DNA of 31,342 nucleotides, from the IMG/VR virus record IMGVR_UViG_3300027734_000218, positions 1 through 31,342 of that record, one strand, 5' to 3'. Positions within the stretch are counted from its first letter, which is position 1. Each line of letters starts with the position of its first letter. This document shows, piece after piece, positions 1 through 29,391 of the stretch. The position numbers and the translations under genes are program-made. This stretch comes from a virus. The notes under the pieces were generated by a model that searched no databases, had not been told where the DNA came from, and saw only the letters and a list, made by a program, of their open reading frames with translations.

Positions 1-3000
1 GAAGTACCTGAAGTCGCAGATGTTCCACTTGTACCTGAGGTTCCTGTAGTACCGCTAGTTCCTGTTGTTCCACTTGTACCAGCTGTTGCAGATGTTCCTG
101 AAGTTGCAGATGTACCTGAAGTACCAGTTGTTCCTGAAGTTCCCGTTGTACCACTTGTTCCAGCAGTTGCCGAAGTACCTGAAGTCGCAGATGTCCCACT
201 TGTTCCTGACGTTCCTGTAGTACCGCTAGTTCCTGTTGTTCCACTTGTACCATTTACACCAGATGTACCACTTGTTCCAGCAGTTGCAGATGTTCCTGAA
301 GTTGCAGATGTCCCACTAGTTCCTGAAGTACCTGTTGTTCCTGACGTTGCAGATGTTCCACTTGTTCCTGACGTACCTGTAGTACCTGATGTACCAGCAG
401 TTGCTGATGTTCCTGAAGTACCACTAGTTCCTGTTGTTCCTGAAGTACCACTAGTTGCAGATGTTCCTGAAGTTCCACTTGTACCCGTAGTTCCTGATGT
501 ACCAGCTGTTGCTGATGTTCCACTTGTTCCTGATGTACCCGTAGTTCCTGATGTACCTGTAGTTCCTGATGTACCTGTAGTTCCTGAAGTTCCAGCTGTT
601 GCCGAAGTTCCTGACGTACCACTTGTTCCTGTAGTTCCTGATGTACCTGACGTTGCAGATGTTCCACTTGTTCCTGATGTACCCGTAGTTCCTGATGTTC
701 CAGCTGTTGCTGAAGTTCCTGATGTACCGCTTGTGCCCGTAGTTCCTGAAGTTCCACTTGTAGCCGAAGTACCTGATGTACCACTTGTTCCTGTAGTTCC
801 TGATGTACCACTAGTACCTGTTGTACCTGATGTACCACTAGTTGCAGAAGTACCACTTGTTCCTGAAGTTCCTGTAGTACCTGAAGTACCACTAGTTGCA
901 GATGTACCACTTGTTCCCGATGTACCTGTAGTTCCTGATGTACCACTTGTAGCGGATGTTCCTGAAGTACCACTAGTTCCTGTTGTACCTGAAGTACCTG
1001 ATGTTGCAGAAGTTCCTGACGTACCACTTGTTCCTGAAGTTCCTGTTGTACCTGAAGTTCCACTTGTTGCAGATGTTCCTGAAGTTCCTGATGTACCCGT
1101 AGTTCCTGATGTTCCTGCAGTTGCTGATGTACCTGAAGTTCCAGATGTACCACTTGTTCCTCTTGTACCAGAAGTTCCACTTGTTCCTGATGTTCCATTT
1201 GTGCCTGCCAGGGCCATTACTGCCCAACCACCATCAAAAGGATTATTGTCTATTTGTACTTGTAGAGATATGTAACTACTACCAAACAGTTCAACAACAT
1301 CGTTAATCTGATATAAGGTTGAACCATTATAAGTTCCTCTCCAAGTAAAGGATGTACCTGAAGTTCCACTCGAACCACTCGTACCTCTAGTTCCACTTGT
1401 TCCTGATGTACCTGTAGTACCTGAAGTTGCGGATGTTCCACTAGTTCCTGAAGTACCTGTAGTTCCTGATGTTCCTGTTGTACCACTTGTTCCAGCAGTT
1501 GCTGATGTACCTGAGGTTGCTGAAGTACCTGAAGTACCACTAGTTCCTGTTGTTCCTGACGTACCTGTTGTACCGCTAGTTCCTGAAGTTGCAGATGTTC
1601 CTGAAGTTCCTGTTGTTCCACTTGTTCCTGTAGTTCCACTTGTTCCACTTGTTCCTGTAGTTCCACTTGTTCCTGAGGTTGCAGATGTTCCTGAAGTTCC
1701 GCTAGTTCCACTTGTACCTGATGTACCCGAAGTTGCAGATGTTCCACTTGTACCTGACGTTCCTGTTGTTCCACTTGTTCCTGTAGTTCCACTTGTACCT
1801 GAAGTTCCTGTTGTACCACTTGTTCCCGCAGTTGCGGATGTACCTGAAGTAGCAGATGTACCACTAGTTCCTGAAGTGCCTGCAGTACCTGTTGTACCAC
1901 TTGTTCCAGCAGTTGCAGATGTTCCACTAGTTCCTGACGTTCCTGTTGTTCCTGACGTTCCTGTTGTTCCACTTGTTCCTGTAGTTCCACTTGTTCCTGA
2001 TGTACCTGTTGTACCACTTGTTCCAGCGGTTGCTGAAGTTCCTGAAGTTGCAGATGTACCACTTGTTCCTGTAGTTCCACTAGTTCCTGATGTTCCTGAT
2101 GTTCCTGATGTTCCTGTAGTTCCACTTGTACCTGAAGTTCCAGATGTACCTGTAGTTCCTGAAGTTCCACTTGTTGCAGATGTTCCTGAAGTTCCAGATG
2201 TACCTGTAGTACCTGAAGTACCACTAGTTCCACTTGAACCATTATTTCCTGATGTACCCGAAGTACCTGTTGTACCCGAAGTACCTGTTGTTCCTGAAGT
2301 ACCTGTTGTTCCTGATGAACCGCTAGTACCACTTGTTCCACTTGTCCCTGAAGTACCTGTTGTTCCTGACGTACCTGAAGTCGCAGAGGTTCCACTTGTT
2401 CCTGATGTACCTGTTGTTCCTGAAGTTCCTGTTGAACCACTAGTTCCTGAAGTTCCTGTTGAACCACTAGTTCCTGAAGTTCCTGTCGTTCCTGATGTAC
2501 CTGTTGTACCGCTTGTTCCTGTCGTACCTGAAGTACCATCTATTCCTGAAGTTCCACTTGAACCAGATGTACCTGTTGTACCGCTTGTTCCTGTAGTTCC
2601 TGATGTACCACTTGTTCCTGTAGTTCCTGATGTACCTGTTGTACCTGAAGTACCACTAGTTCCACTTGAACCTGATGTTCCTGTTGTACCTGAAGTACCA
2701 CTAGTTCCCGTAGTTCCTGAAGTACCGCTTGTTGCTGATGTTCCTGAGGTTCCACTTGTTGCGGATGTACCCGAAGTACCACTTGTGCCTGATGTTCCAC
2801 TAGTTCCTGTTGTACCGCTAGTTCCTGCAGTACCTGAAGTACCTGTTGTTCCTGAAGAACCACTTGTTCCTGAAGTACCTGTTGTTCCAGCAGTTCCTGA
2901 TGTACCGTTTGTACCTGAAATACCCGAGGTTCCTGATTCACCTGACACACCTGATGTTCCTGAACTACCTGAAATACCATCTGTTCCACTTGTTCCTGAG

Positions 3001-4952
3001 GTACCTGATGTGCCACTTGTTCCTGATGTTCCTGAAGAACCTGATGTTCCGCTTGTTCCTGATGTTCCCGTTGTACCACTTGTTCCTGAAGTCCCTGTTG
3101 TACCTGAAGTACCTGAAGTACCCGAAGTACCACTAGTACCTGTTGAACCACTAGTTCCTGAAGTCCCTGTTGTACCACTTGTTCCCGAAGAACCTGCAGT
3201 ACCCGCAGTAGCAGATGTTCCTGAAGAACCTGAGGTTCCTGTTGTACCGCTTGTTCCTGTTGTACCGCTTGTTCCTGATGTTCCTGTTGTACCTGAAGTA
3301 CCACTAGTTCCTGAAGAACCTGAAGTCCCTGTTGTACCACTAGTACCTGAAGTCCCTGTTGTTCCTGAAGAACCTGATGTTCCACTAGTACCAGAAGTAC
3401 CTGTTGTACCGCTTGAACCGCTTGTTCCTGAAGAACCTGATGTTCCGCTTGTTCCTGAAGTGCCTGTTGAACCACTTGTTCCTGATGTTCCTGAAGAACC
3501 ACTTGTTCCTGATGTTCCTGAAGAACCTGAGGTACCGCTAGTTCCTGAAGAACCTGCAGTTCCAGCAGTTGCTGAAGTACCCGAAGAACCGCTTGTCCCT
3601 GAACTACCAGATGTTCCTGTTGTACCACTTGTACCTGAAGTACCACTTGTTCCGTCTATTCCTGATGTTCCTGAAGAACCACTTGTTCCTGTTGTACCTG
3701 AAGAACCTGATGTACCACTAGTTCCTGTTGTACCGCTAGTTCCTGAAGAACCCGAAGTACCTGTTGTACCTGAAGTTCCTGATGAACCTGATGAACCTGA
3801 TGTACCACTTGTACCTGTAGTACCTGAAGAACCTGAAGAACCACTAGTTCCTGTTGTACCACTTGAGCCGCTAGTTCCTGAAGAACCACTTGTTCCTGTT
3901 GTACCACTTGTACCCGATGTACCTGTTGTACCACTAGTTCCGTCTATTCCTGATGTTCCTGAAGAACCACTTGTTCCGTCTATTCCTGATGTTCCTGAAG
4001 AACCACTTGTTCCTGTTGTACCTGAAGAACCTGATGTACCACTAGTTCCTGTTGTACCGCTAGTTCCTGAAGAACCCGAAGTACCTGTTGTACCTGAAGT
4101 TCCTGATGAACCTGATGAACCTGATGTACCACTTGTACCTGTAGTACCTGAAGAACCTGAAGAACCACTAGTTCCTGTTGTACCACTTGAGCCGCTAGTT
4201 CCTGAAGAACCACTTGTTCCTGTTGTACCACTTGTACCCGATGTACCTGTTGTACCACTAGTTCCGTCTATTCCTGATGTTCCTGAAGAACCACTTGTTC
4301 CGTCTATTCCTGATGTTCCTGAAGAACCACTTGTTCCTGTTGTACCACTTGAACCTGATGTTCCTGTAGAACCTGATGTTCCACTAGTCCCTGTTGTTCC
4401 TGAAGAACCACTAGTTCCTGTCGTACCGCTTGTTCCATCTATGCCTGATGTTCCTGAAGAACCGCTTGTACCTGTTGTACCTGAAGAACCACTTGTACCT
4501 GAAGTACCACTAGTTCCATCTATTCCTGATGTTCCTGAAGAACCACTTGTTCCTGAAGAACCGCTTGTTCCGTCTATTCCTGATGTTCCTGAAGAACCAC
4601 TTGTTCCTGAAGTACCACTAGTTCCATCAGTACCTGAAGTACCATCTGTTCCGCTAGTTCCTGATGTTCCTGATGTTCCACTTGAACCTGATGTTCCTGA
4701 TGTTCCACTTGAACCTGATGTTCCTGATGTTCCACTTGAACCTGATGTTCCTGAAGTACCATTTAATGTTGAGGCACTAATAGTGTGTAATTGTCCATTA
4801 GCGTCAATAGTAACCACCAAAGGGTCGACCGATTGGGTCAACCCTGAGATGAAAATTTCTCCTGCGCTTCCGAGTTTTATTCTTTTAATCCCATCCGTTG
4901 ATAAAAATAATTCATCGTCAATCGAATAGAAAAAACCTTTATTAAGTGCCAT
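1..4952 (-). CDS. Giant collagen-like (Gly-X-Y) tail fibre protein, partial (C-terminus beyond left edge)
   Basis: The true frame starts at ATG 4952 and stays open to base 1, giving at least 1650 residues without a stop. I checked the phase of the glycine codons at about eight points and found no frameshift. Residues 1-64 are a non-repetitive head beginning [16 protein letters not shown], probably the part that attaches to the tail or a partner fibre (inference). Gly-X-Y triplets follow, mostly GTS, GTT, GSS, GTD and GID, with almost no proline and no Lys/Arg. Residues about 1202-1250 form a globular island with [22 protein letters not shown] and [10 protein letters not shown], resembling the CBM5/12-like modules of phage fibres. 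Gly-X-Y then resumes, but with many Ala residues at Gly positions. The gene lies 3 bp after the stop of the other collagen-like fibre and in the same frame. It is probably a trimeric stalk for receptor binding; the receptor-binding tip is expected beyond the window. No Shine-Dalgarno sequence is evident. Confidence 0.85.
3642..4346. repeat. 324-bp exact tandem duplication in the partial collagen-like fibre
   Basis: Bases 3642-4022 are identical to 3966-4346, giving a 324-bp period (108 codons, 36 Gly-X-Y triplets). The unit keeps the reading frame. Exact identity, including synonymous positions, contrasts with the silent-site variation among ordinary triplets and indicates a recent event. Confidence 0.9.
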
Positions 4953-4955
4953 ATG

Positions 4956-7900
4956 TTATATAATTTGTACCCATCCACCTGATTTATAGATATATAATCC
5001 TTCGTCTCCGTCTGTTTGATATACTATTAAAGCCACATCAACTGCCGACATCGTTAGATTATTTCTCTGAGTTTCTGTTAATCTTGGGAACATGATTCCT
5101 CTTGTTCCAAATATTTCGAATATTGCGTTTACGGTTGTTCTTGTTGTTTGTCCTATTACTATCGTATTTCCTGTTCCTCCTGTTACCTCAGCAATTGGTG
5201 TTGTCGTATCTCCAATAGTATCTGTTGAAGTGAATTTAACAATTGTGTTAAGTGTTCCTCCTACTGCGACTGAGGTTCCTGAAGTACCTGTTGTACCTGA
5301 AGTTCCACTAGTACCTGTTGTTCCTGAAGTACCTGATGTTCCGCTAGTTCCTGTTGTTCCTGATGTTCCTGATGAACCACTAGTTCCGCTTGTACCCGTT
5401 GTACCTGAAGTACCTGATGAACCACTAGTTCCATCTGTACCTGAAGTTCCTGATGTACCACTTGTTCCTGAAGTACCATCTGTACCGCTAGTACCTGATG
5501 TTCCTGTTGTTCCTGATGTTCCTGATGAACCTGATGTTCCTGTTGTCCCTGAAGTACCACTAGTACCACTAGTACCACTAGTACCTGTTGTGCCACTTGA
5601 GCCGTCTGTTCCTGAAGTACCACTAGTTCCTGTTGTACCTGATGTTCCTGAAGTACCACTAGTACCTGTTGTACCACTTGAACCATCTGTTCCCGAAGTA
5701 CCGCTAGTCCCTGTTGTACCTGAAGTACCATCTGTACCTGAAGTACCTGAAGTTCCACTTGTTCCTGATGTACCACTAGTTCCTGATGAACCACTAGTAC
5801 CCGTTGTTCCTGAAGTTCCTGAAGTTCCTGATGAACCACTAGTTCCTGTTGTTCCTGAAGTTCCACTAGAACCACTTGTTCCTGAAGTACCACTTGAACC
5901 ACTTGTTCCTGAGGTTCCTGAAGTTCCTGATGAACCACTTGTTCCTGTTGTACCATCCGTTCCTGAAGTTCCTGATGAACCGCTAGTACCTGATGAACCT
6001 GAAGTTCCCGTTGTACCTGAAGTTCCCGTTGTACCTGAGCTACCTGATGTTCCGCTAGTACCTGAAGTACCACTAGTTCCTGATGAACCTGAAGTACCAC
6101 TAGTTCCTGATGAACCTGAAGTACCATCTGTTCCGCTAGTCCCTGATGAACCTGAAGTTCCGCTAGTTCCATCTGTACCACTTGTTCCGTCTGTTCCTGA
6201 AGTTCCTGATGAACCTGAAGTTCCTGAAGTTCCTGAAGTACCGTCTATACCACTAGTACCTGATGTACCATCTATACCACTAGTACCTGAAGTACCATCT
6301 ATTCCGCTTGTTCCTGAAGTACCATCTAAACCTGATGTACCGCTAGTTCCTGATGTTCCTGATGTTCCTGAAGTTCCGTCTATTCCTGAAGTTCCGCTAG
6401 TTCCTGATGTTCCATCTATTCCGCTAGTTCCTGATGTTCCATCTATTCCACTAGTTCCTGATGTTCCATCTATTCCACTAGTTCCTGATGTTCCATCTAT
6501 TCCTGAAGTTCCATCTGTACCGCTAGTCCCTGAAGTACCGTCTGTTCCGCTAGTTCCTGAAGTTCCATCTGTACCGCTAGTTCCTGAAGTTCCCGAAGTT
6601 CCTGTTGTTCCACTTGAACCTGAGGTCCCTGTTGTTCCCGAAGTTCCTGTTGTTCCCGAAGTTCCTGAAGTACCACTTGTTCCGTTAACCCCACTTAATC
6701 CTGAAGTACCTGATGTTCCATCAGTTCCGCTAGTACCATCTGTACCCGATGTTCCATCTATTCCACTAGTTCCTGAAGTACCGTCTGTTCCGCTAGTTCC
6801 ATCTGTACCTGAAGTACCGTCTGTTCCGCTAGTTCCGTCTATTCCTGAAGTACCGCTAGTACCATCTGTACCCGATGTTCCATCTATTCCACTAGTTCCT
6901 GAAGTACCGTCTGTTCCTGAAGTACCATCTGTACCTGAAGTACCGTCTGTTCCGCTAGTTCCGTCTATTCCTGAAGTTCCTGATGAACCTGAAGTACCAC
7001 TTGTTCCATCTATTCCTGATGTACCTGAAGTACCGTCTGTTCCTGAAGTACCATCTGTTCCGCTAGTTCCATCTATTCCTGAAGTACCGCTAGTTCCTGA
7101 TGTACCTGAAGTACCGTCTGTTCCTGAAGTACCATCTGTTCCGCTAGTTCCATCTATTCCTGAAGTACCGCTAGTTCCTGTTGTACCACTTGTTCCGTCA
7201 GTACCTGAAGTACCATCTGTTCCGCTAGTTCCATCTATTCCTGAAGTACCGCTAGTTCCTGTTGTACCACTTGTTCCGTCAGTACCTGAAGTACCATCTG
7301 TTCCGCTAGTTCCATCTATTCCTGAAGTTCCACTTGTTCCGTCAGTACCTGAAGTACCATCTGTTCCACTAGTACCATCTATTCCTGAAGTACCTGATGT
7401 ACCATCTGTTCCACTTGTTCCGTCAGTACCTGATGTACCATCTATTCCTGAAGTACCACTAGTTCCTGTTGAACCTGAAGTTCCGTCTATACCTGAAGTA
7501 CCGCTAGTACCTGATGTACCATCTATTCCTGAAGTACCACTAGTTCCTGTTGTACCTGATGAACCTGAAGTTCCACTAGTTCCTGATGTACCTGATGTTC
7601 CTGATGTTCCACTTGAACCTCGTGCTCCTACAAGACAAAGTGTAACTCCTGCCTGTGTTTTATAACCAGGATTTTGAGAATATGTAATAACCGCGACTAA
7701 AGCTCCTGTTGAAGCGGTATAACCGCTAATTAAAATATCTTCTATAATATTATCAGGTGCATATACACTTAATGTTTGTCCTGGTGCCCATGACATATTT
7801 GGATACGAAGGTCCATTGTAGGGCTGTCCTACCGATTGAAAATAATAATCACCAGCTAAGAATGGTGTACAAATTAAAGGTGATGTTCCTGATGTACCAC

Positions 7901-10367
7901 TAGTTCCTGAAGTACCGCTAGTACCTGTTGAACCTGAAGTACCACTTGTTCCGTCTATACCTGATGTACCTGAAGTTCCACTAGTTCCATCTATTCCTGA
8001 AGTACCGCTAGTTCCTGTTGTTCCTGATGAACCGCTAGTTCCTGTTGTTCCTGATGAACCGCTAGTTCCTGAAGTACCCGTTGTTCCTGATGAACCGCTA
8101 GTTCCTGAAGTACCACTTGTTCCGTCAGTACCTGAAGTGCCATCTATTCCTGAAGTTCCGCTTGTTCCTGTTGTACCTGAAGTACCGTCTGTTCCACTTG
8201 TTCCGTCAGTACCTGAAGTGCCATCTATTCCTGAAGTACCACTAGTTCCTGTTGTACCTGAAGTACCATCTATTCCACTTGTTCCATCTATTCCTGAAGT
8301 ACCGCTTGTTCCTGTTGTACCTGAAGTTCCATCTGTACCTGAAGTACCATCCGTACCGCTAGTTCCGTCTGTACCGCTAGTTCCGTCTGTACCCGAAGTA
8401 CCATCTATTCCTGAAGTACCTGAAGTTCCGCTAGTTCCTGTTGTTCCACTTGTTCCGTCAGTACCTGATGTACCATCTGTTCCACTAGTACCATCTATTC
8501 CTGAAGTACCGCTAGTTCCTGTTGTACCTGAAGTACCATCCGTACCGCTAGTTCCGTCAGTACCTGAAGTACCATCTGTTCCACTTGTTCCGTCAGTACC
8601 TGATGTACCATCTATTCCTGAAGTACCACTAGTTCCTGTTGTACCTGATGAACCTGAAGTTCCTGAGGTACCATCTGTTCCACTAGTTCCGTCTATTCCT
8701 GAAGTACCTGATGTACCACTTGTACCTGAAGTACCATCTGTTCCACTAGTTCCGTCTATTCCTGAAGTACCTGATGTACCACTTGTACCTGAAGTACCAT
8801 CTGTTCCACTAGTACCATCTATTCCTGAAGTACCGCTAGTTCCTGTTGTACCTGAAGTACCATCTGTTCCACTAGTTCCGTCTATTCCTGAAGTACCTGA
8901 TGTACCACTTGTACCTGAAGTACCATCTGTTCCACTAGTACCATCTATTCCTGAAGTACCGCTAGTTCCTGTTGTACCTGAAGTACCATCTGTTCCACTA
9001 GTACCATCTATTCCTGAAGTACCGCTAGTTCCTGTTGTTCCACTAGTTCCATCTATTCCTGAAGTACCGCTAGTTCCTGTTGTACCTGATGTACCATCTG
9101 TTCCACTAGTTCCATCTATTCCTGAAGTTCCACTAGTTCCTGTTGTTCCTGATGTACCATCTGTTCCACTAGTTCCATCTATTCCTGAAGTTCCACTAGT
9201 TCCTGTTGTTCCTGATGTACCATCTGTTCCACTTGTTCCGTCAGTACCTGAAGTACCATCTGTTCCACTAGTTCCATCTATTCCTGAAGTTCCACTAGTT
9301 CCTGTTGTTCCTGATGTACCATCTGTTCCACTTGTTCCGTCAGTACCTGATGTACCATCTGTTCCACTAGTACCATCTATTCCTGAAGTTCCACTAGTTC
9401 CTGTTGTTCCTGATGAACCTGAAGTTCCTGAGGTACCATCTGTTCCACTAGTTCCGTCTATTCCTGAAGTACCTGATGTACCACTTGTACCTGAGGTTCC
9501 TCCTGTTATTGTTACGGTAATATTTCCACCACCATCGTTTGTTACTGTTGCACCATTAAATGTTATTCCTGATACAGGGTCAACTGTCGTAATTCCGTCA
9601 CCAACCGATAAGGCTGAACCAGAACCTGAAGTAATTCCTGTTATAACAACACTACCTCCACCACTATTATTAAGAGTTAAACTTGAAGTTCCACTATCAT
9701 AAGTTCCACCAGTAACACTACTGTTGAACCCTGAAATTGATACTGTACCTCCTGTACTATTATATAAATCTAAAGTTGAAGTTGCTGAGTAATAAGTACC
9801 ACCTGTGATGGCCTCATTATCTCCATGGAATATTCTCCATCTTGCATCTAAGTAAGTCGCTCCATCAATACCTTCAATTGTAGAACCTGTCCATGCATTC
9901 ATAAGAGCAGTACCACCTGCTCCGACATTAACAACTTGATAACCGTATTCTAATTCGGTAACGTCATTATCAGCAACCGCAATGTTCCAAAGTGACGAAT
10001 AATTAGGTATTTGAAATTGATATGTTTCCTGAGTTTCTTGGACAAATACCAACATACCCAATCTTCTTCTACCCGAAGAAATACCATCATTATACAAGTT
10101 TAATTGGTTAATTACTGGCGGATTAAATGGAACGTAACCCCCACATATGAAACTGATTGGAATGGTATTACCTGTAAAGACTACCTCCCCACCTCCATCA
10201 TATATATCGGTAGGAATAGTCCAATTTAAGTCAGATAGGTTCCATACTTCCATGTACCCACCTACCATGTCGACACTAAATGATACTCCCGTATTACTTA
10301 TTCTATCAACGGAAAAAGGTCCATTAACAAAAGTATCTGAGGTTGGATTTTTATAATTGAAACTCAT
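4956..10367 (-). CDS. Giant collagen-like (Gly-X-Y) tail fibre protein, complete (1803 aa)
   Basis: Residues 1-289 are non-repetitive and rich in Gly, Ser, Thr and Asn, with beta-type repeats such as TGGTYDSGTSSLTLNNSGG; this is the likely attachment and shaft base. Residues about 290-830 are unbroken Gly-X-Y triplets, dominated by a 21-residue super-repeat of GID, GTS, GTD and GTT units. An island of about 80 residues (834-914; FLAGDYYFQSV, LSVYAPDNIIEDILISGY) interrupts the tract, and Gly-X-Y resumes to about 1698. The C-terminal 105 residues contain MFPRLTETQRNNL, ALIVYQTD and YIYKSGGW, a pattern common at the ends of phage fibres and Bacteroidota surface proteins, and a likely trimerisation or tip domain. 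Only Asp carries charge in the repeats, and proline is absent from them. The ATG at 10367 is preceded by an A/T-rich leader. The product is inferred to be a long fibre contacting the host; its receptor is unknown. Confidence 0.88.
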   Translation of the reverse strand: MSFNYKNPTSDTFVNGPFSVDRISNTGVSFSVDMVGGYMEVWNLSDLNWTIPTDIYDGGGEVVFTGNTIPISFICGGYVPFNPPVINQLNLYNDGISSGRRRLGMLVFVQETQETYQFQIPNYSSLWNIAVADNDVTELEYGYQVVNVGAGGTALMNAWTGSTIEGIDGATYLDARWRIFHGDNEAITGGTYYSATSTLDLYNSTGGTVSISGFNSSVTGGTYDSGTSSLTLNNSGGGSVVITGITSGSGSALSVGDGITTVDPVSGITFNGATVTNDGGGNITVTITGGTSGTSGTSGTSGIDGTSGTDGTSGTSGSSGTTGTSGTSGIDGTSGTDGTSGTDGTSGTDGTSGTTGTSGTSGIDGTSGTDGTSGTDGTSGTDGTSGTTGTSGTSGIDGTSGTDGTSGTTGTSGTSGIDGTSGTDGTSGTTGTSGTSGIDGTSGTTGTSGTSGIDGTSGTDGTSGTTGTSGTSGIDGTSGTDGTSGTSGTSGTSGIDGTSGTDGTSGTTGTSGTSGIDGTSGTDGTSGTSGTSGTSGIDGTSGTDGTSGTSGTSGTSGIDGTSGTDGTSGTSGSSGTTGTSGTSGIDGTSGTDGTSGTDGTSGTDGTSGTDGTSGTTGTSGTSGIDGTSGTDGTSGTDGTSGTTGTSGTSGTSGIDGTSGTDGTSGTDGTSGTDGTSGTDGTSGTTGTSGTSGIDGTSGIDGTSGTTGTSGTSGIDGTSGTDGTSGTDGTSGTTGTSGTSGIDGTSGTDGTSGTSGTSGSSGTTGTSGTSGSSGTTGTSGSSGTTGTSGTSGIDGTSGTSGTSGIDGTSGTSGSTGTSGTSGTSGTSGTSPLICTPFLAGDYYFQSVGQPYNGPSYPNMSWAPGQTLSVYAPDNIIEDILISGYTASTGALVAVITYSQNPGYKTQAGVTLCLVGARGSSGTSGTSGTSGTSGTSGSSGTTGTSGTSGIDGTSGTSGTSGIDGTSGSTGTSGTSGIDGTSGTDGTSGTDGTSGTSGIDGTSGTDGTSGTDGTSGTSGIDGTSGTDGTSGTDGTSGTTGTSGTSGIDGTSGTDGTSGTDGTSGTTGTSGTSGIDGTSGTDGTSGTDGTSGTSGTSGTSGIDGTSGTDGTSGTDGTSGTSGIDGTSGTSGSSGTSGIDGTSGTDGTSGTDGTSGTDGTSGTSGIDGTSGTDGTSGTSGIDGTSGTDGTSGTDGTSGTDGTSGTSGIDGTSGTDGTSGTDGTSGTSGLSGVNGTSGTSGTSGTTGTSGTTGTSGSSGTTGTSGTSGTSGTDGTSGTSGTDGTSGTSGTDGTSGIDGTSGTSGIDGTSGTSGIDGTSGTSGIDGTSGTSGTSGIDGTSGTSGTSGTSGTSGLDGTSGTSGIDGTSGTSGIDGTSGTSGIDGTSGTSGTSGSSGTSGTDGTSGTDGTSGTSGSSGTSGTDGTSGSSGTSGTSGSSGTSGTSGTSGTSGSSGTTGTSGTTGTSGSSGTSGSSGTSGTDGTTGTSGSSGTSGTSGTSGSSGTSGTSGSSGTSGTTGTSGSSGTSGTSGTTGTSGSSGTSGTSGTSGTSGTSGTDGTSGTTGTSGTSGTDGSSGTTGTSGTSGTSGTTGTSGTSGTDGSSGTTGTSGTSGTSGTSGTTGTSGSSGTSGTTGTSGTSGTDGTSGTSGTSGTSGTDGTSGSSGTSGTTGTSGTSGSSGTSGTTGTSGTSGTSGTTGTSGTSGTTGTSGTSVAVGGTLNTIVKFTSTDTIGDTTTPIAEVTGGTGNTIVIGQTTRTTVNAIFEIFGTRGIMFPRLTETQRNNLTMSAVDVALIVYQTDGDEGLYIYKSGGWVQII
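7060..7302. repeat. 81-bp tandem repeat (three copies) in the 1803-aa fibre
   Basis: Units begin at 7060, 7141 and 7222 with CCGCTAGTTCCATCTATTCC, and a fourth start lies at 7303. The copies at 7141 and 7222 are identical over 81 bp, and the 7060 copy differs in its second half. Each unit encodes 27 residues, nine Gly-X-Y triplets. Confidence 0.8.
8671..9048. repeat. 63-bp tandem super-repeat (six copies) in the 1803-aa fibre
   Basis: Units begin at 8671, 8734, 8797, 8860, 8923 and 8986 with CCATCTGTTCCACTAGT. Each encodes 21 residues (seven Gly-X-Y triplets including one GID and at least one GTD). The first two copies are identical, and later copies vary in the middle. The 63-bp phase reappears at 9094, 9157 and 9220. 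Confidence 0.85.
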
Positions 10368-10418: not shown

Positions 10419-12038
10419 TTATACTAACGTTCCTCCTTGTAAGAAGTTTGGTAGTGAACTTATAGGTAATTGGAACGACGTACCATTGTACGTTGAATAC
10501 ATTCTATATGTTCCAGCTGGCATGTTAGTGCTTCCTGAATAGTTAACTATTAAACTATTATAAGTTGTATTCATATTTCTTGAAATCATCGAACCTGATG
10601 ATGTTCCGTTTTTAACTTGTGAATATTTCAATCCATTAGTTGCTCCAGTTGAAGCGAAAATTATAACCCAACTTGTTGCTGAGAATGCTCCTGTTGGGAT
10701 TCTAGTTGTTTGGAATTTGTAAGCTTCAATTGGATTACCAAATGCGTCATTACCTCCTGATACTGTTGAAATTGGTGCCGTAATAATTGCTGGTTCATAA
10801 ACTCCCCATCCTGAGTAACTAATAAATGCATTCATTTGAGTATCAAATGATGCCTGTGTTGTTGACGGTACTGAGAATCCAGCAACGTTAAATCCTCTAA
10901 ATTGAGGTGTTATCGCTCCTTGATTACCTTGCATCCAAGTACTTAAATTGTTTCTAGAAGCAACATCACCTTGGTCCATAAAGATGTAAGCGAATAACGG
11001 AGCATTTGTTGGTGTAGGTGTTGGTGTACTTGTTGAAGTTGTTGTTACCGTTGGTGTATTTGTTTGTGTTACCGTTGGTGTATTTGTTGGTGTTTCAGTT
11101 GGTGTTGAAGTTACAGTTGCAGTGTTAGTCGGAGTAGGTGTCATAGTAGCTGTTGCAGTTGCCGTTGCGGTAACTGTCGCAGTGTTAGTTGGTGTAGGTG
11201 TAGCCGTTGCCGTCTCAGTTGGAGTCGGTGTTAACGTCGCAGTTGCGGTTGGTGTTGATGTTAAAGTTGTTGTTGGTGTACTTGTAACTGTTGGAGTTTG
11301 AGTTGGTGTTTCAGTAGGAGTACTTGTTGGTGTTTCACTTGGAGTTTGAGTCGGAGTTTCTGTGTTAGTTGGTGTTACTGTAGGTGTTGAAGTCTCAGTA
11401 TTTGTAGGCGTATTTGTAGGAGTCTCTGTTGGAGTTGATGTCGGAGTTTCTGTATTAGTTGGTGTTACACTTGCAGTATTAGTTGGTGTATTAGTTGGTG
11501 TTTCACTCGGAGTATTAGTTGGTGTATTAGTTGGAGTTGAAGTTACTGTTTGTGTATTAGTTGGTGTTACCGTTGAAGTGTTAGTTGTAGTTACAGTTGG
11601 AGTATTTGTTGGTGTTTCACTTGGTGTGTTTGTTGGAGTTTCTGTTGGCGTAGGACTAGCTCCTATTGTAGGAGTTGGACTTGGCGTATTTGTTGGTGTT
11701 GGAGTATTAGTTGCAGTCTCTGTCGGAGTCGGCGTATTGGTCGCAGTCTGTGACGGAGTTGGCGTTAATGTTGCCCCTGGAGTTATTGATGGAGTAGGTG
11801 TTGGTGTAGGTGTAGTACAATCTAAGGTTATTACTACCCCGTTGAACATATCTGTTCTTGTATAACCTGAACCAATTAAAGATGTGTTGACGTAAATACT
11901 AAATGGACCTAACGCATTTGAGTTAGAAGCTAGTCTTACTATGTAAGTTGTACATGCGCTTACACTAAGTTGTTCTGTTACTGTAGTATCATTACAACCA
12001 GGTGCATTATTTACGACTAAAATATTATAAAGTGCCAT
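10419..12038 (-). CDS. Putative fibre/adhesin with long Thr/Pro-rich stalk
   Basis: This 539-residue protein has three parts. Residues 1-73 are a small Cys-containing domain ([18 protein letters not shown], then [13 protein letters not shown]). Residues about 74-345 are a low-complexity Thr/Pro/Asn stalk built from TPT, NTPT and ETPT units; its only charge comes from Glu. Residues about 346-539 are a globular C-terminal domain beginning [18 protein letters not shown] and ending in a Gly-, Ser- and Thr-rich beta-type sequence. The stalk resembles extended, often O-glycosylated Thr/Pro linkers in secreted proteins (family knowledge). The C-terminal domain is a candidate receptor-binding or enzymatic tip, but I do not recognise it. 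The gene lies between the SprB-repeat group and the collagen-like fibres, which supports a tail-fibre or decoration role. ATG 12038 lies inside a 10-bp palindrome. Confidence 0.8.
11005..11820. repeat. Thr/Pro low-complexity coding tract
   Basis: About 270 codons of degenerate 6- to 12-bp units (plus-strand GTTGGTGTA, GTTTCAGTTGGTGT and similar) encode TPT, NTPT and ETPT units in the 539-aa protein. Synonymous variation is high, so recent expansion is not evident. Confidence 0.85.
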
Positions 12039-12132: not shown

Positions 12133-12516
12133 TTAGCAGCTTGGGTCTGATAAACTTAAATCATTAATAAAACAACTCGGGTCGGCTAAACTAACTCCAA
12201 AAACACAAGAAGAATTTTGAATGTCTATGTTAACAACACAGCTTTCCATCTGAATTGTAATTTGGAATGTACATCCAAAAGTACATTGAAGTATTTTAAA
12301 AACTTGACATCCATTCGCATCGACCAACAAAAGCATTATTTCAGGTGCAGTTTCAAAAATTGAAGGAATTACCGTGTTATAATAGACTGTTGGTGGAACT
12401 GTTGTTCCTGTTGCAATCGTACCTAATAACGATTGATTATTTCCATAAACATCCGCTATATAAACATTAATTGGATTCGTTCCTCCTGATATGTCCGTTA
12501 TTCTTACTTGTGTCAT
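12133..12516 (-). CDS. Small Cys-rich tail-associated protein with C-terminal Cys repeats
   Basis: I chose ATG 12516 (127 aa) because it overlaps the upstream TGA by 4 nt (ATGA), the usual mark of translational coupling. A GTG at 12525 would add three residues. The N-terminal half (MTQVRITDISGGTNPINVYI) looks like a small beta domain. The C-terminal third carries regularly spaced cysteines: LQCTFGC, MESC, NSSC, DPSC and a final DPSC, with 10-11 residues between the last ones, giving an acidic Asp/Ser/Cys repeat. I do not recognise the family. Its neighbours suggest a minor tail-fibre or baseplate decoration. Whether the cysteines form disulfides or bind metal cannot be read from the sequence. 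Confidence 0.75.
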   Translation of the reverse strand: MTQVRITDISGGTNPINVYIADVYGNNQSLLGTIATGTTVPPTVYYNTVIPSIFETAPEIMLLLVDANGCQVFKILQCTFGCTFQITIQMESCVVNIDIQNSSCVFGVSLADPSCFINDLSLSDPSC

Positions 12517-14645
12517 GATAAGCACATTATGTCATAAACTATAACTAAGTCGATTATAATTTCTTGTCCTTGTAGAGAAGTATTATTTCTGCTTGTTTCA
12601 ATAGTTATTTGGTTATTTAATTGGTCGATAGTTACATTACCAATGCCAGGAATACTCAACAATAAAGATTTAATAGTATTATACCATAAATTATCACTTG
12701 GCGCTTGAACTAACGATGTTGAAGTAAAGAATGGTTGACTTACAACTGTTCCTGCAGGATTTACAGATACTTTAGCGGTATAGACCGCATTAACTAACGC
12801 GCATTCTGTGTTACCTGTCGTTAAATCATAGAATCCTTCATTTAACATTTGCAACATACCAAATTTAGTTGGAGATGATATGTTGAAGACTTCGGCTCCC
12901 ATTACATATGATTGATATGACGCGTAATTTTTGTAACAATTAATATTTGTTGACCTTGTTAATGAACATCCATTACTATCTACGACAGTTAAACTATATG
13001 TTCCCGCAGTTAATCCTGTTACTTGAATTTGTTGTGGTTCATTGGCAATATTGTCCGACCAATTAAAATTAAATGGTGGTTCTCCTGATGAAATAAATGC
13101 AGTTATTTGTCCGTTACTTCCACTACCACAAGAAGTACTATATAATGAGAAGTCTAAACGTTGGCTAAATGGAATAGATACTGTTTGAGTTTGAACACAA
13201 CCGTCAGAATCTGTTACTGTAACCGTATGAGGCCCTGCAGATAAATTATTAAATGTTACCGCACTTAAATTTGTATCAAGAACATTATATAACCCATCAA
13301 CAGAATAGTCTAATGGCATAGTTCCTCCCGTTGTTGAATATATTGTGATTAGTCCATTATTTTGATTACAACTTGTTGAAGTTACATCTGTTGAAATTGT
13401 AAATTTGTTTTCAGTAATAATTGTTACTTCTTGCATATATGAGCAACCCGTTGAATCTGAAACCGCAACAGTATATGTACCAGTTGATAATCCATTAAAA
13501 ACATAAGTTGTTTGTGAGGTATTAATATTTGTTTGAGCTCCGTTTGGAGATATTAATGTGTAAGTATATGGTGTTGACCCTCCAACCACTGATATTTGAA
13601 TCAATCCGTTTGTGCTTGAACATGTTGAATTTTGGTTACTTACTAATACAGATGTTATACCACCTGGAGTTTGTAATGTTGTCCCCGCAAATAATTGACA
13701 AAACGCGGCGTCAGTAACTTGGAAATTGTAATCTCCAGCGGTTAACCCTGATAAACTATACGTTCTTGAATAAGATACTAAAACATTACCTGTTGACGCA
13801 GAATAATAAAATGGCGCGGTTCCTCCTGTAATCGTCAAATTAATTACCCCATTATTTTGAAAACAACCTGGTGATGTCGATGTAATAATACCTAAACCTA
13901 TTTGATTAACATTTGTAACGGAACCTTCAGCAGATTTTGTACATCCATATGCATCGGTTACAGCAACTGAATAACTACCCGAAGTTAAACCTGTAATTGT
14001 ACTACCTGTTTGTCCATTACTCCATAGGTATGAAAAAGGAGCTTGTCCTGTTTGACCTGTTACTGTAATTTTACCTATTGGAGTTCCACCGCAACTTGAA
14101 TTTGGCACAACATACAATCCAAAATCAAATGCTGTTGATGTATCAATAATAAAACTTTGAGTTTCACCTGAACATCCACCCAAATCTTCTGCAACCATAT
14201 AATAGGAACCATAGTCTATATTACCAAAAATAATTTCTGAAGTATTAGTTATCGCAGATTGAATTAAAGTATTACTCATGTCATACAAATAAAAATTTGT
14301 TGACGAATATAATGATGTTGATGTTCCTGTTACAGAGCCGTTCGCAAAATCACATGTAGTATCTTGTACACCTAAAATTGACGCACAAACACCACTTGAG
14401 ACTGGTATGTTTATGTAAAATTCTTGGTTTGTTGGTAATGTAGAATCATTAACTCTTACAACATATGTGTCAGCAGATAAATTGTATCTAGACGAATATA
14501 AGACTGCGGTATCTTGACCTAAGTTAGGGCTTGTCCATTGGACAGTATATGGCTCGGTTCCTCCTGTTGGTACTATGGTGATAGCACCAGTGTTTTGGGA
14601 TTGACAATCCCCCGTAATCTGTAATATATAATTAAATGCTGCCAT
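12513..14645 (-). CDS. Tail protein with seven SprB-like repeats
   Basis: This 710-residue protein consists of about seven modules of 55-70 residues (roughly residues 13-70, 98-165, 183-243, 262-325, 343-410, 427-493, 506-567). Each opens with a Cys followed by an N-G-x-I-type strand and closes with a V-x-D-x-x-G-C-type motif. The third is the clearest, with PFSYLWSNGQTGSTITGLTS followed by YSVAVTDAYGC. This matches the SprB repeat family known from Bacteroidota gliding adhesins and secreted surface proteins. Residues about 570-710 form a separate C-terminal domain that also appears at the end of the preceding gene product. ATG 14645 overlaps the upstream TAA by 1 nt. The protein is inferred to be a fibre or adhesin-like decoration with paired cysteines bracketing each module. 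The exact function is unknown. Confidence 0.82.
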   Translation of the reverse strand: MAAFNYILQITGDCQSQNTGAITIVPTGGTEPYTVQWTSPNLGQDTAVLYSSRYNLSADTYVVRVNDSTLPTNQEFYINIPVSSGVCASILGVQDTTCDFANGSVTGTSTSLYSSTNFYLYDMSNTLIQSAITNTSEIIFGNIDYGSYYMVAEDLGGCSGETQSFIIDTSTAFDFGLYVVPNSSCGGTPIGKITVTGQTGQAPFSYLWSNGQTGSTITGLTSGSYSVAVTDAYGCTKSAEGSVTNVNQIGLGIITSTSPGCFQNNGVINLTITGGTAPFYYSASTGNVLVSYSRTYSLSGLTAGDYNFQVTDAAFCQLFAGTTLQTPGGITSVLVSNQNSTCSSTNGLIQISVVGGSTPYTYTLISPNGAQTNINTSQTTYVFNGLSTGTYTVAVSDSTGCSYMQEVTIITENKFTISTDVTSTSCNQNNGLITIYSTTGGTMPLDYSVDGLYNVLDTNLSAVTFNNLSAGPHTVTVTDSDGCVQTQTVSIPFSQRLDFSLYSTSCGSGSNGQITAFISSGEPPFNFNWSDNIANEPQQIQVTGLTAGTYSLTVVDSNGCSLTRSTNINCYKNYASYQSYVMGAEVFNISSPTKFGMLQMLNEGFYDLTTGNTECALVNAVYTAKVSVNPAGTVVSQPFFTSTSLVQAPSDNLWYNTIKSLLLSIPGIGNVTIDQLNNQITIETSRNNTSLQGQEIIIDLVIVYDIMCLS

Positions 14646-27076: not shown

Positions 27077-28915
27077 TTACGAGAAGGTAACTGATTGGAA
27101 GTTCTTAACTGAAACGGTGATATCTTTATTTGGATAACGAATTTGGTAAACCTGTGATGGTTGTGCAAATATTGTATCGTCAACAGGTGCAATTTCTTTT
27201 GTTTCAGGATTTGAATATTGCATTGAAGTTTCAGCAGATGAATATTGTCCACCAACATTATTATAAACGTTAAGTCCCGCAACAGTTAATACACCATTTT
27301 GATTTTGAACAATACTTCTAATCTCAGATAGATAAACATTTTGTCCAAGTTGTCTTACTTGTGGGTTAAAATATGCCGAAACTTTATCAACAACATCTGA
27401 TATAATTTGACCAGAATTTTGAGCAGAATCTAAAACAATCTGAATATCAATACTAAGGTCAATAACCTCAGCCGTTAAGATTGAAATGTAATCGTTTATC
27501 ATTCTATAGTTAGATAAGTATGTTGCAACGTTCTGTCTTAAAGTGTCAGACACAATGTTTGTTAACTTACCCGAAGTATCATAAGATAATAATTGGATTA
27601 AAATTTTGTTGTTGTTTTCAGTGATGGAAACCTTTGCAGGTGCCCCAAACTCTGATGGCATGTTTCTAATGATTGCCTCATAATCTTGTACAGTAACCGC
27701 TCTTTTTTGAGCTGCGAAATTAAACGAAACATAGTTTCTAATTTCTTCTAATGAAGGTAATCCCGCCCCACCAATAGCGGCAGTCACGTTATTACATCTT
27801 AATGAGTTAACAACGGCCGAGTTAGTTAATTCTGAAGGACCGTTAACGTAGAATGAAACAGTACCAATTTGGTTAATAACGTTTGTACCTAAATTTGTCG
27901 CTAAACCTCCCCCAACTCTATATTGAACAAATAATGTTGAATTAGGAGTTAATGCTGAACCTAACGAAAAGTTGTTAGAGTATCTTTGTAGGTCTAATGT
28001 TGTTCCTAAAGTTGTAAATTGATTTAACGCATCTTGAGCGGTATTAGTACCGCCACCAAAAGTTAATTTTTTAAATCCTTCAGGAGTATACTCACTAATA
28101 AATCTATTTTGTGTTTGGATATATCTTCCAACTTTAATACCTGGCTGGTCTGAAACTTTTGTAGGGTCTTCAACAAATACTCTATCTTCAGCTAATGCAT
28201 CTACTTGGTACCATTTGTTTGGTACCCCTAAAAATTCTGCCGCGGTTGGTAAGTTGGTATATTCTGTTCCGTCTTTCAACAAAACACTTGTAATACCTAA
28301 CACATTCTTTTCAGGTAAAAATAACTCAAAGAAAGGTTTAACATCGTTTGGTCCAATAACTCTCTTGAATACTTTAGTTATACCATTAACAACAAGTTCT
28401 CTTTTTGTAATCGTATAGTTAATTAAAACGTTATTAGCGTTGAAGTTAGGTATCTTTAATCTATTTGGAAATCCTTGGGCGTTATATGGTGACGTAAAAT
28501 CAATATCATAAATGTTTTCAAAAACAATTCCAGCACCTGTTACTTGGGACCCTCTTGTTAGGGTTCCTAAGTATCTTTCGTCTTCTTTGTCTCCAAAAGC
28601 TGGTACTGTGATTGAAAAATCAACTAAAGCAACTGAAGGTCTTTGACCTGGCAATTTTAAACCATAAGTTCTTGCAATGTTATAAATTGAAGACCTTTGT
28701 TGAGCGTATTGAAGGACCGTCTCTTGAATACTTCTATCAATGTGATAGTGTAAGTTATCTGCAACCGCAGCATTTAAATCTAAGAATACTGAGAATACGG
28801 AAGCATCATTAAAATCCTGTATTAGTTCAGGGTAATATGTTCTTACATAATTTAATAACTCAGTTCTTATTCCTTGATAGTCTCTGGTTGTGTATGATAT
28901 TTTACGATTTGCCAT
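27077..28915 (-). CDS. Baseplate wedge protein, gp6/J-like (612 aa)
   Basis: The N-terminus (SYTTRDYQGIRTELLNYVRT, then YYPELIQDFNDASVFSVFLD) is the standard opening of T4 gp6-type and J-like baseplate proteins. It is followed by ADNLHYHIDRSIQETVL and an R-x-x-x-Y-N-I-A-R-T-Y-G-L motif. The central part includes EEIRNYVSFNFAAQKRAVTV with the QDYEAIIR motif, also characteristic of baseplate J/gp6 proteins. In contractile-tailed phages this protein forms the inner baseplate ring around the hub and pairs with the gp25-like protein. That gene lies immediately upstream here, with a 5-bp gap. Length is close to that of T4 gp6. This is a confident family call; the exact T4 equivalence rests on motif and synteny. 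Confidence 0.9.
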   Translation of the reverse strand: MANRKISYTTRDYQGIRTELLNYVRTYYPELIQDFNDASVFSVFLDLNAAVADNLHYHIDRSIQETVLQYAQQRSSIYNIARTYGLKLPGQRPSVALVDFSITVPAFGDKEDERYLGTLTRGSQVTGAGIVFENIYDIDFTSPYNAQGFPNRLKIPNFNANNVLINYTITKRELVVNGITKVFKRVIGPNDVKPFFELFLPEKNVLGITSVLLKDGTEYTNLPTAAEFLGVPNKWYQVDALAEDRVFVEDPTKVSDQPGIKVGRYIQTQNRFISEYTPEGFKKLTFGGGTNTAQDALNQFTTLGTTLDLQRYSNNFSLGSALTPNSTLFVQYRVGGGLATNLGTNVINQIGTVSFYVNGPSELTNSAVVNSLRCNNVTAAIGGAGLPSLEEIRNYVSFNFAAQKRAVTVQDYEAIIRNMPSEFGAPAKVSITENNNKILIQLLSYDTSGKLTNIVSDTLRQNVATYLSNYRMINDYISILTAEVIDLSIDIQIVLDSAQNSGQIISDVVDKVSAYFNPQVRQLGQNVYLSEIRSIVQNQNGVLTVAGLNVYNNVGGQYSSAETSMQYSNPETKEIAPVDDTIFAQPSQVYQIRYPNKDITVSVKNFQSVTFS

Positions 28916-28920
28916 TTATA

Positions 28921-29391
28921 TTAAATATTGATAATAACAAAATCACTCTGCGAATAAGTGTTTTTATCTGTTGAGTAGTCTATTTTAACCTTTGCTGTGT
29001 AATCCGAAGTTCCTTTTCCTGGAAATCTATATATTGGAGATTCACTTGTTCCCGCTAAATTTTGACCTGTTGCAATGTCAACTTCCTCTTGTGGGTCAGC
29101 AGGAGTGATTGTTATATTATTCAACAATAGATTAGGCATAAAAGTTCCTACCGCATCTCTTATGTCAGATTCGATTGCGTCGAATGTAAGTCCGTCAAAC
29201 GGTTCAAATACAAATTCGTATAATCTTGTTCCAAAAGTAGGTAGAAAATATCTTGAACCCTTTCTTGTTAACAAAAGATGAATCAAATCCGCTTTAATTT
29301 CCTGTGCCTCAAATTGAGTAAGTTGCAAATAATCTCCCCTACTAGAATCTCTAAAAGGAAAATTAATACCATATGTTGTACCTTCAGCCAT
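28921..29391 (-). CDS. gp25-like baseplate wedge protein (GPW/gp25 family)
   Basis: This 156-residue protein has the compact gp25 layout: INFPFRDSSRGDYLQLT near the N-terminus, a helix (EAQEIKADLIHLLLT), then KGSRYFLPTFGTRLYEFVFE, the family's signature of a Gly-Ser-Arg turn followed by an F-G-T-R-L-[YLF] strand. The protein ends in a charged beta strand region. Known members sit in the baseplate wedge and help start sheath assembly. The lysozyme-like name of the family does not imply activity. It is placed directly before the gp6-like gene, the common order in contractile tails. A conserved A/T element lies about 30 nt upstream. No Shine-Dalgarno motif is visible. Confidence 0.92.
   Translation of the reverse strand: MAEGTTYGINFPFRDSSRGDYLQLTQFEAQEIKADLIHLLLTRKGSRYFLPTFGTRLYEFVFEPFDGLTFDAIESDIRDAVGTFMPNLLLNNITITPADPQEEVDIATGQNLAGTSESPIYRFPGKGTSDYTAKVKIDYSTDKNTYSQSDFVIINI

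What the first reader, a model, noticed from the sequence alone, without database searches (positions are those of the whole stretch)
1..2800. Graded Gly-to-Ala replacement inside a collagen-like tract
Reading the partial fibre in frame, Ala occupies Gly positions (ATS, ATA) about twenty times in the 1-1200 region, often every second to fourth triplet. It becomes sparse above 2400 (about two between 2800 and 4760). No such replacement occurs in the 1803-aa fibre. A single Gly replacement normally disrupts a collagen helix, so a regular pattern with a gradient along the protein suggests either a designed flexible zone or a transition to a different repeat fold toward the C-terminus.
Basis: seen in the sequence. 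Interest (0 to 1): 0.62.

Follow-up and report, generated by a model that had tools for sequence, protein, structure and literature searches.

The report
Alanine-spaced collagen-like phage tail fibre
A large phage, probably infecting Bacteroidota, makes a collagen-like tail fibre in which the normally obligatory glycine is repeatedly swapped for alanine by strict placement rules that look selected at the protein level, so either these triple helices tolerate planned weak points or the repeat folds in a way not yet described.

Summary
The minus-strand ORF 4952 to 3 (1650 aa, no C-terminus) holds 511 Gly-X-Y triplets; 38 carry Ala, and nothing else, at the Gly position: 2 in the first 222 triplets, 36 in the last 289. 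The neighbouring 1803-aa fibre has 0 of 442. Spacing is not 'every second to fourth triplet' but mostly six triplets (18 aa), with some two-triplet doublets. The six-triplet unit ([18 protein letters not shown]) shows in the protein, yet synonymous codons show no six-triplet memory, so it is not a fresh DNA duplication; selection on protein sequence is the simplest reading. Relatives carry the same grammar: 612 Ala sites in 175 viral tracts (scan-selected), never in adjacent triplets, Ser before nearly every Ala and never Thr. In unselected viral GTS tracts Ala is rare (4 per 1000 triplets), and no GTS-collagen hit came from 85,000 bacterial and archaeal genomes. The gradient is not general (42 ORFs, mean z 0.0). 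Most likely this is the distal, periodically underwound part of a homotrimeric tail-fibre shaft. Published Gly-to-Ala peptides stay linear but lose stability, so 'flexible hinge' is only weakly supported. The fold is undetermined.

The parts
3..4952 (-). Partial collagen-like fibre protein, 1650 aa, C-terminus beyond the contig end
   Evidence: One open frame; Pfam Collagen PF01391 1.8e-180
4761..4952 (-). N-terminal non-repeat domain (aa 1-64)
   Evidence: Translation; 97% identical in L002 and L003; no Pfam, PHROG or named-phage match
2763..4760 (-). Ala-poor part of tract 1 (222 triplets, 2 Ala at Gly positions), rich in GSS, GID and GTD
3630..4393 (-). 324-bp direct duplication, 2.4 copies at 96%, inside the Ala-poor part
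   Evidence: TRF
1359..2762 (-). Ala-containing part of tract 1 (156 triplets, 15 Ala at Gly positions)
1206..1358 (-). Inserted CBM5/12-like domain (aa 1199-1249)
   Evidence: Pfam CBM_5_12 in 9 of 11 relatives, not in the window copy by itself; PDB chitin-binding domains and tail fibres; AlphaFold pLDDT 85
9..1205 (-). Tract 2: 133 triplets, 21 Ala at Gly positions, six-triplet unit [18 protein letters not shown]
4956..10367 (-). Neighbouring 1803-aa collagen-like fibre with no Ala at Gly positions (442 triplets)
27077..28915 (-). Baseplate wedge subunit (gp6-like), context for a tail-fibre cassette
   Evidence: PHROG 219 1.6e-22; Flavobacterium phage immuto baseplate wedge 26.6%
28921..29391 (-). 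Baseplate wedge gp25
   Evidence: PF04965 6.1e-10; PHROG 261

Best explanation
This is the shaft of a long, collagen-like, most likely homotrimeric phage tail fibre. Its proximal half is an ordinary Gly-X-Y rod and its distal half carries Ala at Gly positions, about one triplet in six in tract 2. The Ala sites are kept by selection on the protein: each sits after a Gly-Thr-Ser triplet, is followed by Thr, is never adjacent to another, and is usually followed two triplets later by Gly-Thr-Thr. In a homotrimer each site would place three methyl groups in the core. The best-supported consequence is local unwinding with loss of stability, without a fixed bend, so the distal shaft would be a straight but underwound rod with soft nodes roughly every 5 nm (18 residues at about 0.29 nm each, textbook rise). 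Shown here: sequence pattern, placement rules, lack of codon memory, occurrence in other phages, baseplate context. Inferred: trimer, triple helix, local unwinding, and any benefit such as torsional compliance or easier assembly of the distal part.
For: Only Ala replaces Gly (38 of 511, no other residue). All 38 follow a GTS triplet where GTS is 64% of Gly triplets. Lag 6 p = 7e-5; GxT two triplets after Ala 15 times against 3.7 expected. Triplet identity at lag 6 is 0.63 while synonymous identity is 0.433 against 0.438 expected, z = -0.2; the same test does detect duplications in other tracts (fibre 1 lag 7 z = 5.0, L047 lag 5 z = 6.7). Relatives: adjacent Ala triplets 0 against 51 expected; Ser before 469 of 474 Ala and Thr before none, while Thr precedes about 10% of Gly. 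The closest relative shows the same paralogue split: fibre 1 without Ala, fibre 2 with 7 Ala in 149 triplets. Fibre context: same strand and window as gp25 and gp6-like wedge genes; the inserted domain resembles one in phage tail fibres such as cyanophage A-1(L) 8kec. Gly-to-Ala peptide: Tm 29 C against 60-64 C, linear, locally unwound, water-bridged (PMC9898670).
Against: No structure: AlphaFold of tract 2 alone had pLDDT 28, and a trimer could not be modelled. The tract has no proline, so triple-helix stability is doubtful without glycosylation or the trimerising ends. The peptide data are for one Ala in a Pro-Hyp-Gly host, not many Ala in a Gly-Thr-Ser chain. Short-range recombination could scramble codons without mutation, which would weaken (not remove) the selection argument. 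A distinct codon context at Ala (TCT before 22 of 38 Ala against 8 of 343 other Ser) shows that something at DNA level also marks these sites.
Confidence: 0.5

Rival explanations
1. Neutral drift in a repeat that no longer needs strict Gly: Ala arises by single G-to-C changes and is spread by repeat copying, with no function.
For: Gly GGA/GGT to Ala GCA/GCT is one base change; Ala codons are mostly GCA with TCT before them, as a founder spread by copying would give; the preferred codon before Ala differs between genomes (L127 TCT, L160 AGT).
Against: Neutral loss should also give Ser, Asp, Val, Arg or Cys at Gly positions; none in 511 triplets. Spacing and neighbour rules are strict and shared by unrelated phages. 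Units carry no synonymous-codon memory except at the Ser just before Ala.
Confidence: 0.2
2. The Ala tract has left the collagen fold and forms another repeat structure (polyglycine-II-type bundle or an unknown solenoid).
For: Ala occupies a fixed phase of an 18-residue unit in tract 2; in L021 the tract switches abruptly from 0 Ala in about 440 triplets to Ala or Ser at about every second triplet with one Leu per 24-residue unit.
Against: Tract 2 here has almost no hydrophobic residues (X position is Thr in 132 of 133), so a solenoid would have no core; the Gly phase is never broken by an indel; the 6-, 3-, 12- and 8-triplet periods of different phages do not point to one coil length.
Confidence: 0.2
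3. Ala sites are deliberate bend points or hinges that let the distal fibre flex, as interruptions do in mannan-binding lectin and C1q.
For: Interruptions can bend triple helices (GQG in MBL, up to 85 degrees; PMC9898670); an Ala for Gly in C1q chain B is named as a possible cause of an untwisted triple helix (PMC11869133).
Against: The Gly-to-Ala peptide itself stayed linear in crystal and solution (PMC9898670); sites every 18 residues make a uniformly softened rod more likely than discrete hinges.
Confidence: 0.1

Closest known systems
Collagen-like phage tail fibres (Pfam PF01391; for example the E. coli prophage proteins of PMC3368898)
   Same: Long Gly-X-Y tracts in tail-fibre-related genes with other domains beside them
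   Different: Those are Pro- and charge-rich with at most a single conserved interruption; this one has no Pro in the tract, mainly Thr and Ser, and dozens of Ala-for-Gly sites by rule
GTS-type bacterial collagen-like proteins (Burkholderia Bucl3, PMC4565658)
   Same: Tract of GTS and GSS triplets
   Different: Ala at Gly positions is not mentioned in the passages found; no GTS-collagen hit came from the bacterial and archaeal genome scan
Interrupted collagens of C1q and mannan-binding lectin
   Same: Natural breaks in the Gly repeat with structural consequences, including an Ala for Gly in C1q chain B (PMC11869133)
   Different: One or a few breaks per chain there; here 38 in the part seen, in a repeating unit, and only Ala
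Gly-to-Ala collagen peptide (1CAG, discussed in PMC9898670)
   Same: Ala replaces Gly in all three chains of a homotrimer
   Different: Single site in Pro-Hyp-Gly, synthetic

Membership tests
Collagen-like (PF01391) | Profile match above Pfam's cut-off | tested here: met
   585 bits against a cut-off of 27.2
Collagen-like (PF01391) | Gly at every third residue without replacement | tested here: not met
   38 of 511 Gly positions are Ala; 2 of 222 in the first part, 36 of 289 in the rest
Collagen-like (PF01391) | Right-handed triple helix of three chains | not testable with these tools
   Single-chain AlphaFold gave pLDDT 28; no multimer prediction on hand
Phage tail fibre | Gene lies in the tail/baseplate cassette | tested here: met
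   gp25 and gp6-like wedge genes in the same window and strand
Phage tail fibre | C-terminal tip or receptor-binding domain | not testable with these tools
   Contig ends inside the gene; both close relatives end there too
Phage tail fibre | Inserted domain of a kind seen in solved tail fibres | tested here: met
   CBM5/12-like fold; best Foldseek match cyanophage A-1(L) tail fibre 8kec, TM 0.80 but E only 0.008
Interrupted collagens (C1q, MBL) | Isolated break in an otherwise perfect tract | tested here: not met
   Breaks recur about every six triplets in tract 2
Polyglycine-II bundle | Bundle of parallel and antiparallel single-chain helices | not tested
   No usable structural model of the tract

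The most novel reading that the evidence does not exclude
Some phages use a repeat in which Gly is not obligatory: a three-chain (or other polyproline-II-like) shaft that takes Ala at about one Gly position in four to eight by a placement code (Ser before, almost never adjacent, fixed unit length), giving a shaft with programmed twist or stiffness along its length.
Probability: 0.3. Interest if true: 0.72.

Novelty: new variant of a known kind. Interest (0 to 1): 0.5.

Why it matters
The rule that every third residue of a collagen helix must be Gly is among the firmest in protein structure. Here is a natural set of phage proteins that break it often, with one residue only and by rule. If they fold as triple helices, they give a ready-made test bed for how Gly-to-Ala changes, known from brittle-bone disease and model peptides, can be tolerated, and a design language for tuning twist and stability along a collagen-like rod. 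If they do not, Pfam's collagen label is wrong for a class of phage fibres.

Tried and rejected
Frameshift or assembly error: rejected, one open frame with zero indels over 511 triplets and three Ala codons in use. Recent tandem duplication as the source of the unit: rejected by the codon test, although the Ala-poor half does hold a 324-bp duplication. A general Gly-to-Ala gradient: rejected over 42 ORFs. Single-chain AlphaFold of tract 2: uninformative. Homologues in named phages by protein: none for the whole fibre, its N-terminus or the 995-aa protein; by DNA, a 735-kb uncultured phage matches the GTS DNA but its GTS tracts hold at most one Ala. A full-length C-terminus was sought with the N-terminal domain and with the fibre-1 C-terminal domain: only the same two truncated relatives carry this gene. 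PDB sequence hits to collagens merely reflect the Gly periodicity. Literature: nothing found on Ala at Gly positions in phage collagens; only open-access papers could be searched. The Ala-scan set was chosen by a pattern containing one Ala, so its density is biased; the placement rules were read from all Ala in those tracts (the pattern allows Thr before Ala), and the density was taken from an unselected scan. In L021, left out of the 469/474 count, a few adjacent Ala pairs do occur (4 in 207).

Full report
WHAT THE WINDOW IS. The window is a whole 31,342-base virus record with no further sequence. It holds a tail module of a large contractile phage on the minus strand: an NrdA-like ribonucleotide reductase, gp25 and gp6-like baseplate wedge proteins, several large unknown proteins, a protein with SprB repeats, a Pro-Thr-rich repeat protein, a complete 1803-aa collagen-like fibre and a second, incomplete one of at least 1650 aa. 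Relatives by baseplate and reductase include phages of Flavobacterium, Tenacibaculum and Cellulophaga, a Microcystis phage and uncultured huge phages; with the SprB repeats, a Bacteroidota host is likely but not shown.

THE OBSERVATION. The second fibre starts at 4952 and runs off the window at base 3 in one open frame. It has 378 Gly-X-Y triplets, a 51-residue insert, then 133 more. 38 of 511 first positions are Ala and none is anything but Gly or Ala. Per 400 bases from the N-terminal side the counts are 0, 0, 0, 2, 0, 2, 4, 5, 4, 6, 7, 8. The spacing claim does not hold: the commonest gap is six triplets, with a few doublets of two; gaps of one, three and four triplets are absent in tract 2. 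The rise of Ala is matched by a fall of GSS and of Gly-X-Asp triplets, while GTS and GxT stay roughly level, so the protein passes from one repeat dialect to another.

THE UNIT. In tract 2 the unit is [18 protein letters not shown]. Lag six is enriched (10 against 3.0, p = 7e-5) and a Gly-X-Thr triplet follows Ala at plus two 15 times against 3.7 expected. All 38 Ala follow a GTS triplet although only 64% of Gly triplets are GTS. The DNA does not share the period: aligned at lag six, triplets are identical in 63% of cases but synonymous codons agree in 43.3% against 43.8% expected by codon usage (z = -0.2). The same test finds clear duplications elsewhere (fibre 1 at lag 7, z 5.0; L047 at lag 5, z 6.7), and TRF finds a 324-bp duplication in the Ala-poor half. 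So the period was not made by recent copying; either old copies were kept alike by selection on the protein while codons scrambled, or the pattern was assembled by selection. Neighbouring triplets avoid equal codons (z = -5.3 here, -13.1 pooled over viral GTS tracts), which would also slow DNA slippage.

RELATIVES. Two records carry the same N-terminal domain at 97%, and both also end inside the gene. In one, the second fibre has 7 Ala in 149 triplets with the same context and the first fibre has none. In 175 non-redundant tracts with 612 Ala, adjacent Ala triplets never occur (51 expected), lag three is enriched (80 against 50), and the two preceding triplets are almost always G-T/S-S or another Ala triplet. 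The residue before Ala is Ser in 469 of 474 and never Thr, although Thr precedes about 10% of Gly. In an unselected scan of viral GTS tracts Ala is found at 4.1 per 1000 triplets, in 21 of 89 tracts, against 45 per 1000 (17/378) and 158 per 1000 (21/133) in this protein's tracts 1 and 2; Pro-rich viral tracts have 2.8. So this is a minority habit. A scan of about 85,000 bacterial and archaeal genomes gave 31 matches, none inside a GTS collagen tract. Units differ between phages: three triplets in L127, twelve in L160, eight in L021. The gradient is not shared: 42 ORFs have a mean position z of 0.0.

THE INSERT. The 51-residue insert resembles carbohydrate-binding module family 5/12: Pfam recognises it in 9 of 11 relatives (not in the window copy itself), profile search hits a chitin-binding domain at 6e-6, and a pLDDT-85 model best matches a domain of the cyanophage A-1(L) tail fibre (TM 0.80, E 0.008). 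This supports a fibre carrying a sugar-binding-like module on its shaft; sugar binding was not tested.

MECHANISM. From published work, replacing one Gly by Ala in (Pro-Hyp-Gly)10 lowers the melting temperature from 60-64 to 29 C, unwinds the helix locally and swaps direct for water-bridged hydrogen bonds, yet the helix stays linear in crystal and solution (PMC9898670). A natural Ala for Gly in C1q chain B is named as a possible cause of an untwisted triple-helix segment (PMC11869133). The most economical model is therefore a straight, underwound and softened distal shaft, not a hinge. The near-ban on adjacent Ala and the ban on Thr just before Ala are what one would expect if each site must be buffered by intact, less bulky neighbours; that is inference.

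WHAT IS NOT EXPLAINED. The Ser codon before Ala is TCT in 22 of 38 cases here against 8 of 343 for other Y-position Ser, with AGT and AGC absent (p = 9e-40), and Ala is GCA in 31 of 38 (p = 1.5e-8 against the other genes' usage). Other genomes show other preferences. This may be a founder effect, or avoidance of TCT before GG codons in this phage; it was not resolved.

VERDICT. Filed as a new variant of collagen-like phage tail fibres, with the defining 'Gly at every third residue' tested and not met in the distal half.

Noticed in passing
window 9-4760 (-), all Ala sites: Ser codon immediately before Ala is TCT in 22 of 38 (8 of 343 elsewhere) and Ala is GCA in 31 of 38; unexplained DNA-level mark of the Ala sites.
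   Followed up: partly
L021 (L052, L076, L119 show the same tracts), aa 432 onward: A 1474-triplet tract: about 440 triplets without Ala, then 207 Ala plus some Ser at Gly positions in a 24-residue unit with one Leu; an abrupt switch that may be a different fold.
   Followed up: partly
viral GTS tracts in general: Neighbouring triplets avoid using the same codons (pooled z = -13.1), as if selected against 9-bp DNA repeats.
   Followed up: partly
window 12513-14645 (-): SprB repeats (PF13573, 1.1e-19), a domain known to me from Bacteroidota surface adhesins, in a phage virion-like protein.
   Followed up: no
window 10419-12038 (-): 539-aa protein with a long PTPTNTPT-type repeat and reversed GC skew (0.45 at 11-12 kb), just upstream of the two collagen-like fibres.
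   Followed up: no
window 3630-4393 (-): 324-bp unit repeated 2.4 times at 96% inside the fibre gene: recent length change of the shaft.
   Followed up: no
window 1876-4929 (+) and 5092-7665 (+): Long antisense open frames (1017 and 857 aa) are a by-product of GGN-ACN-TCN codons read backwards (Glu/Asp-Val-Pro), not genes.
   Followed up: yes
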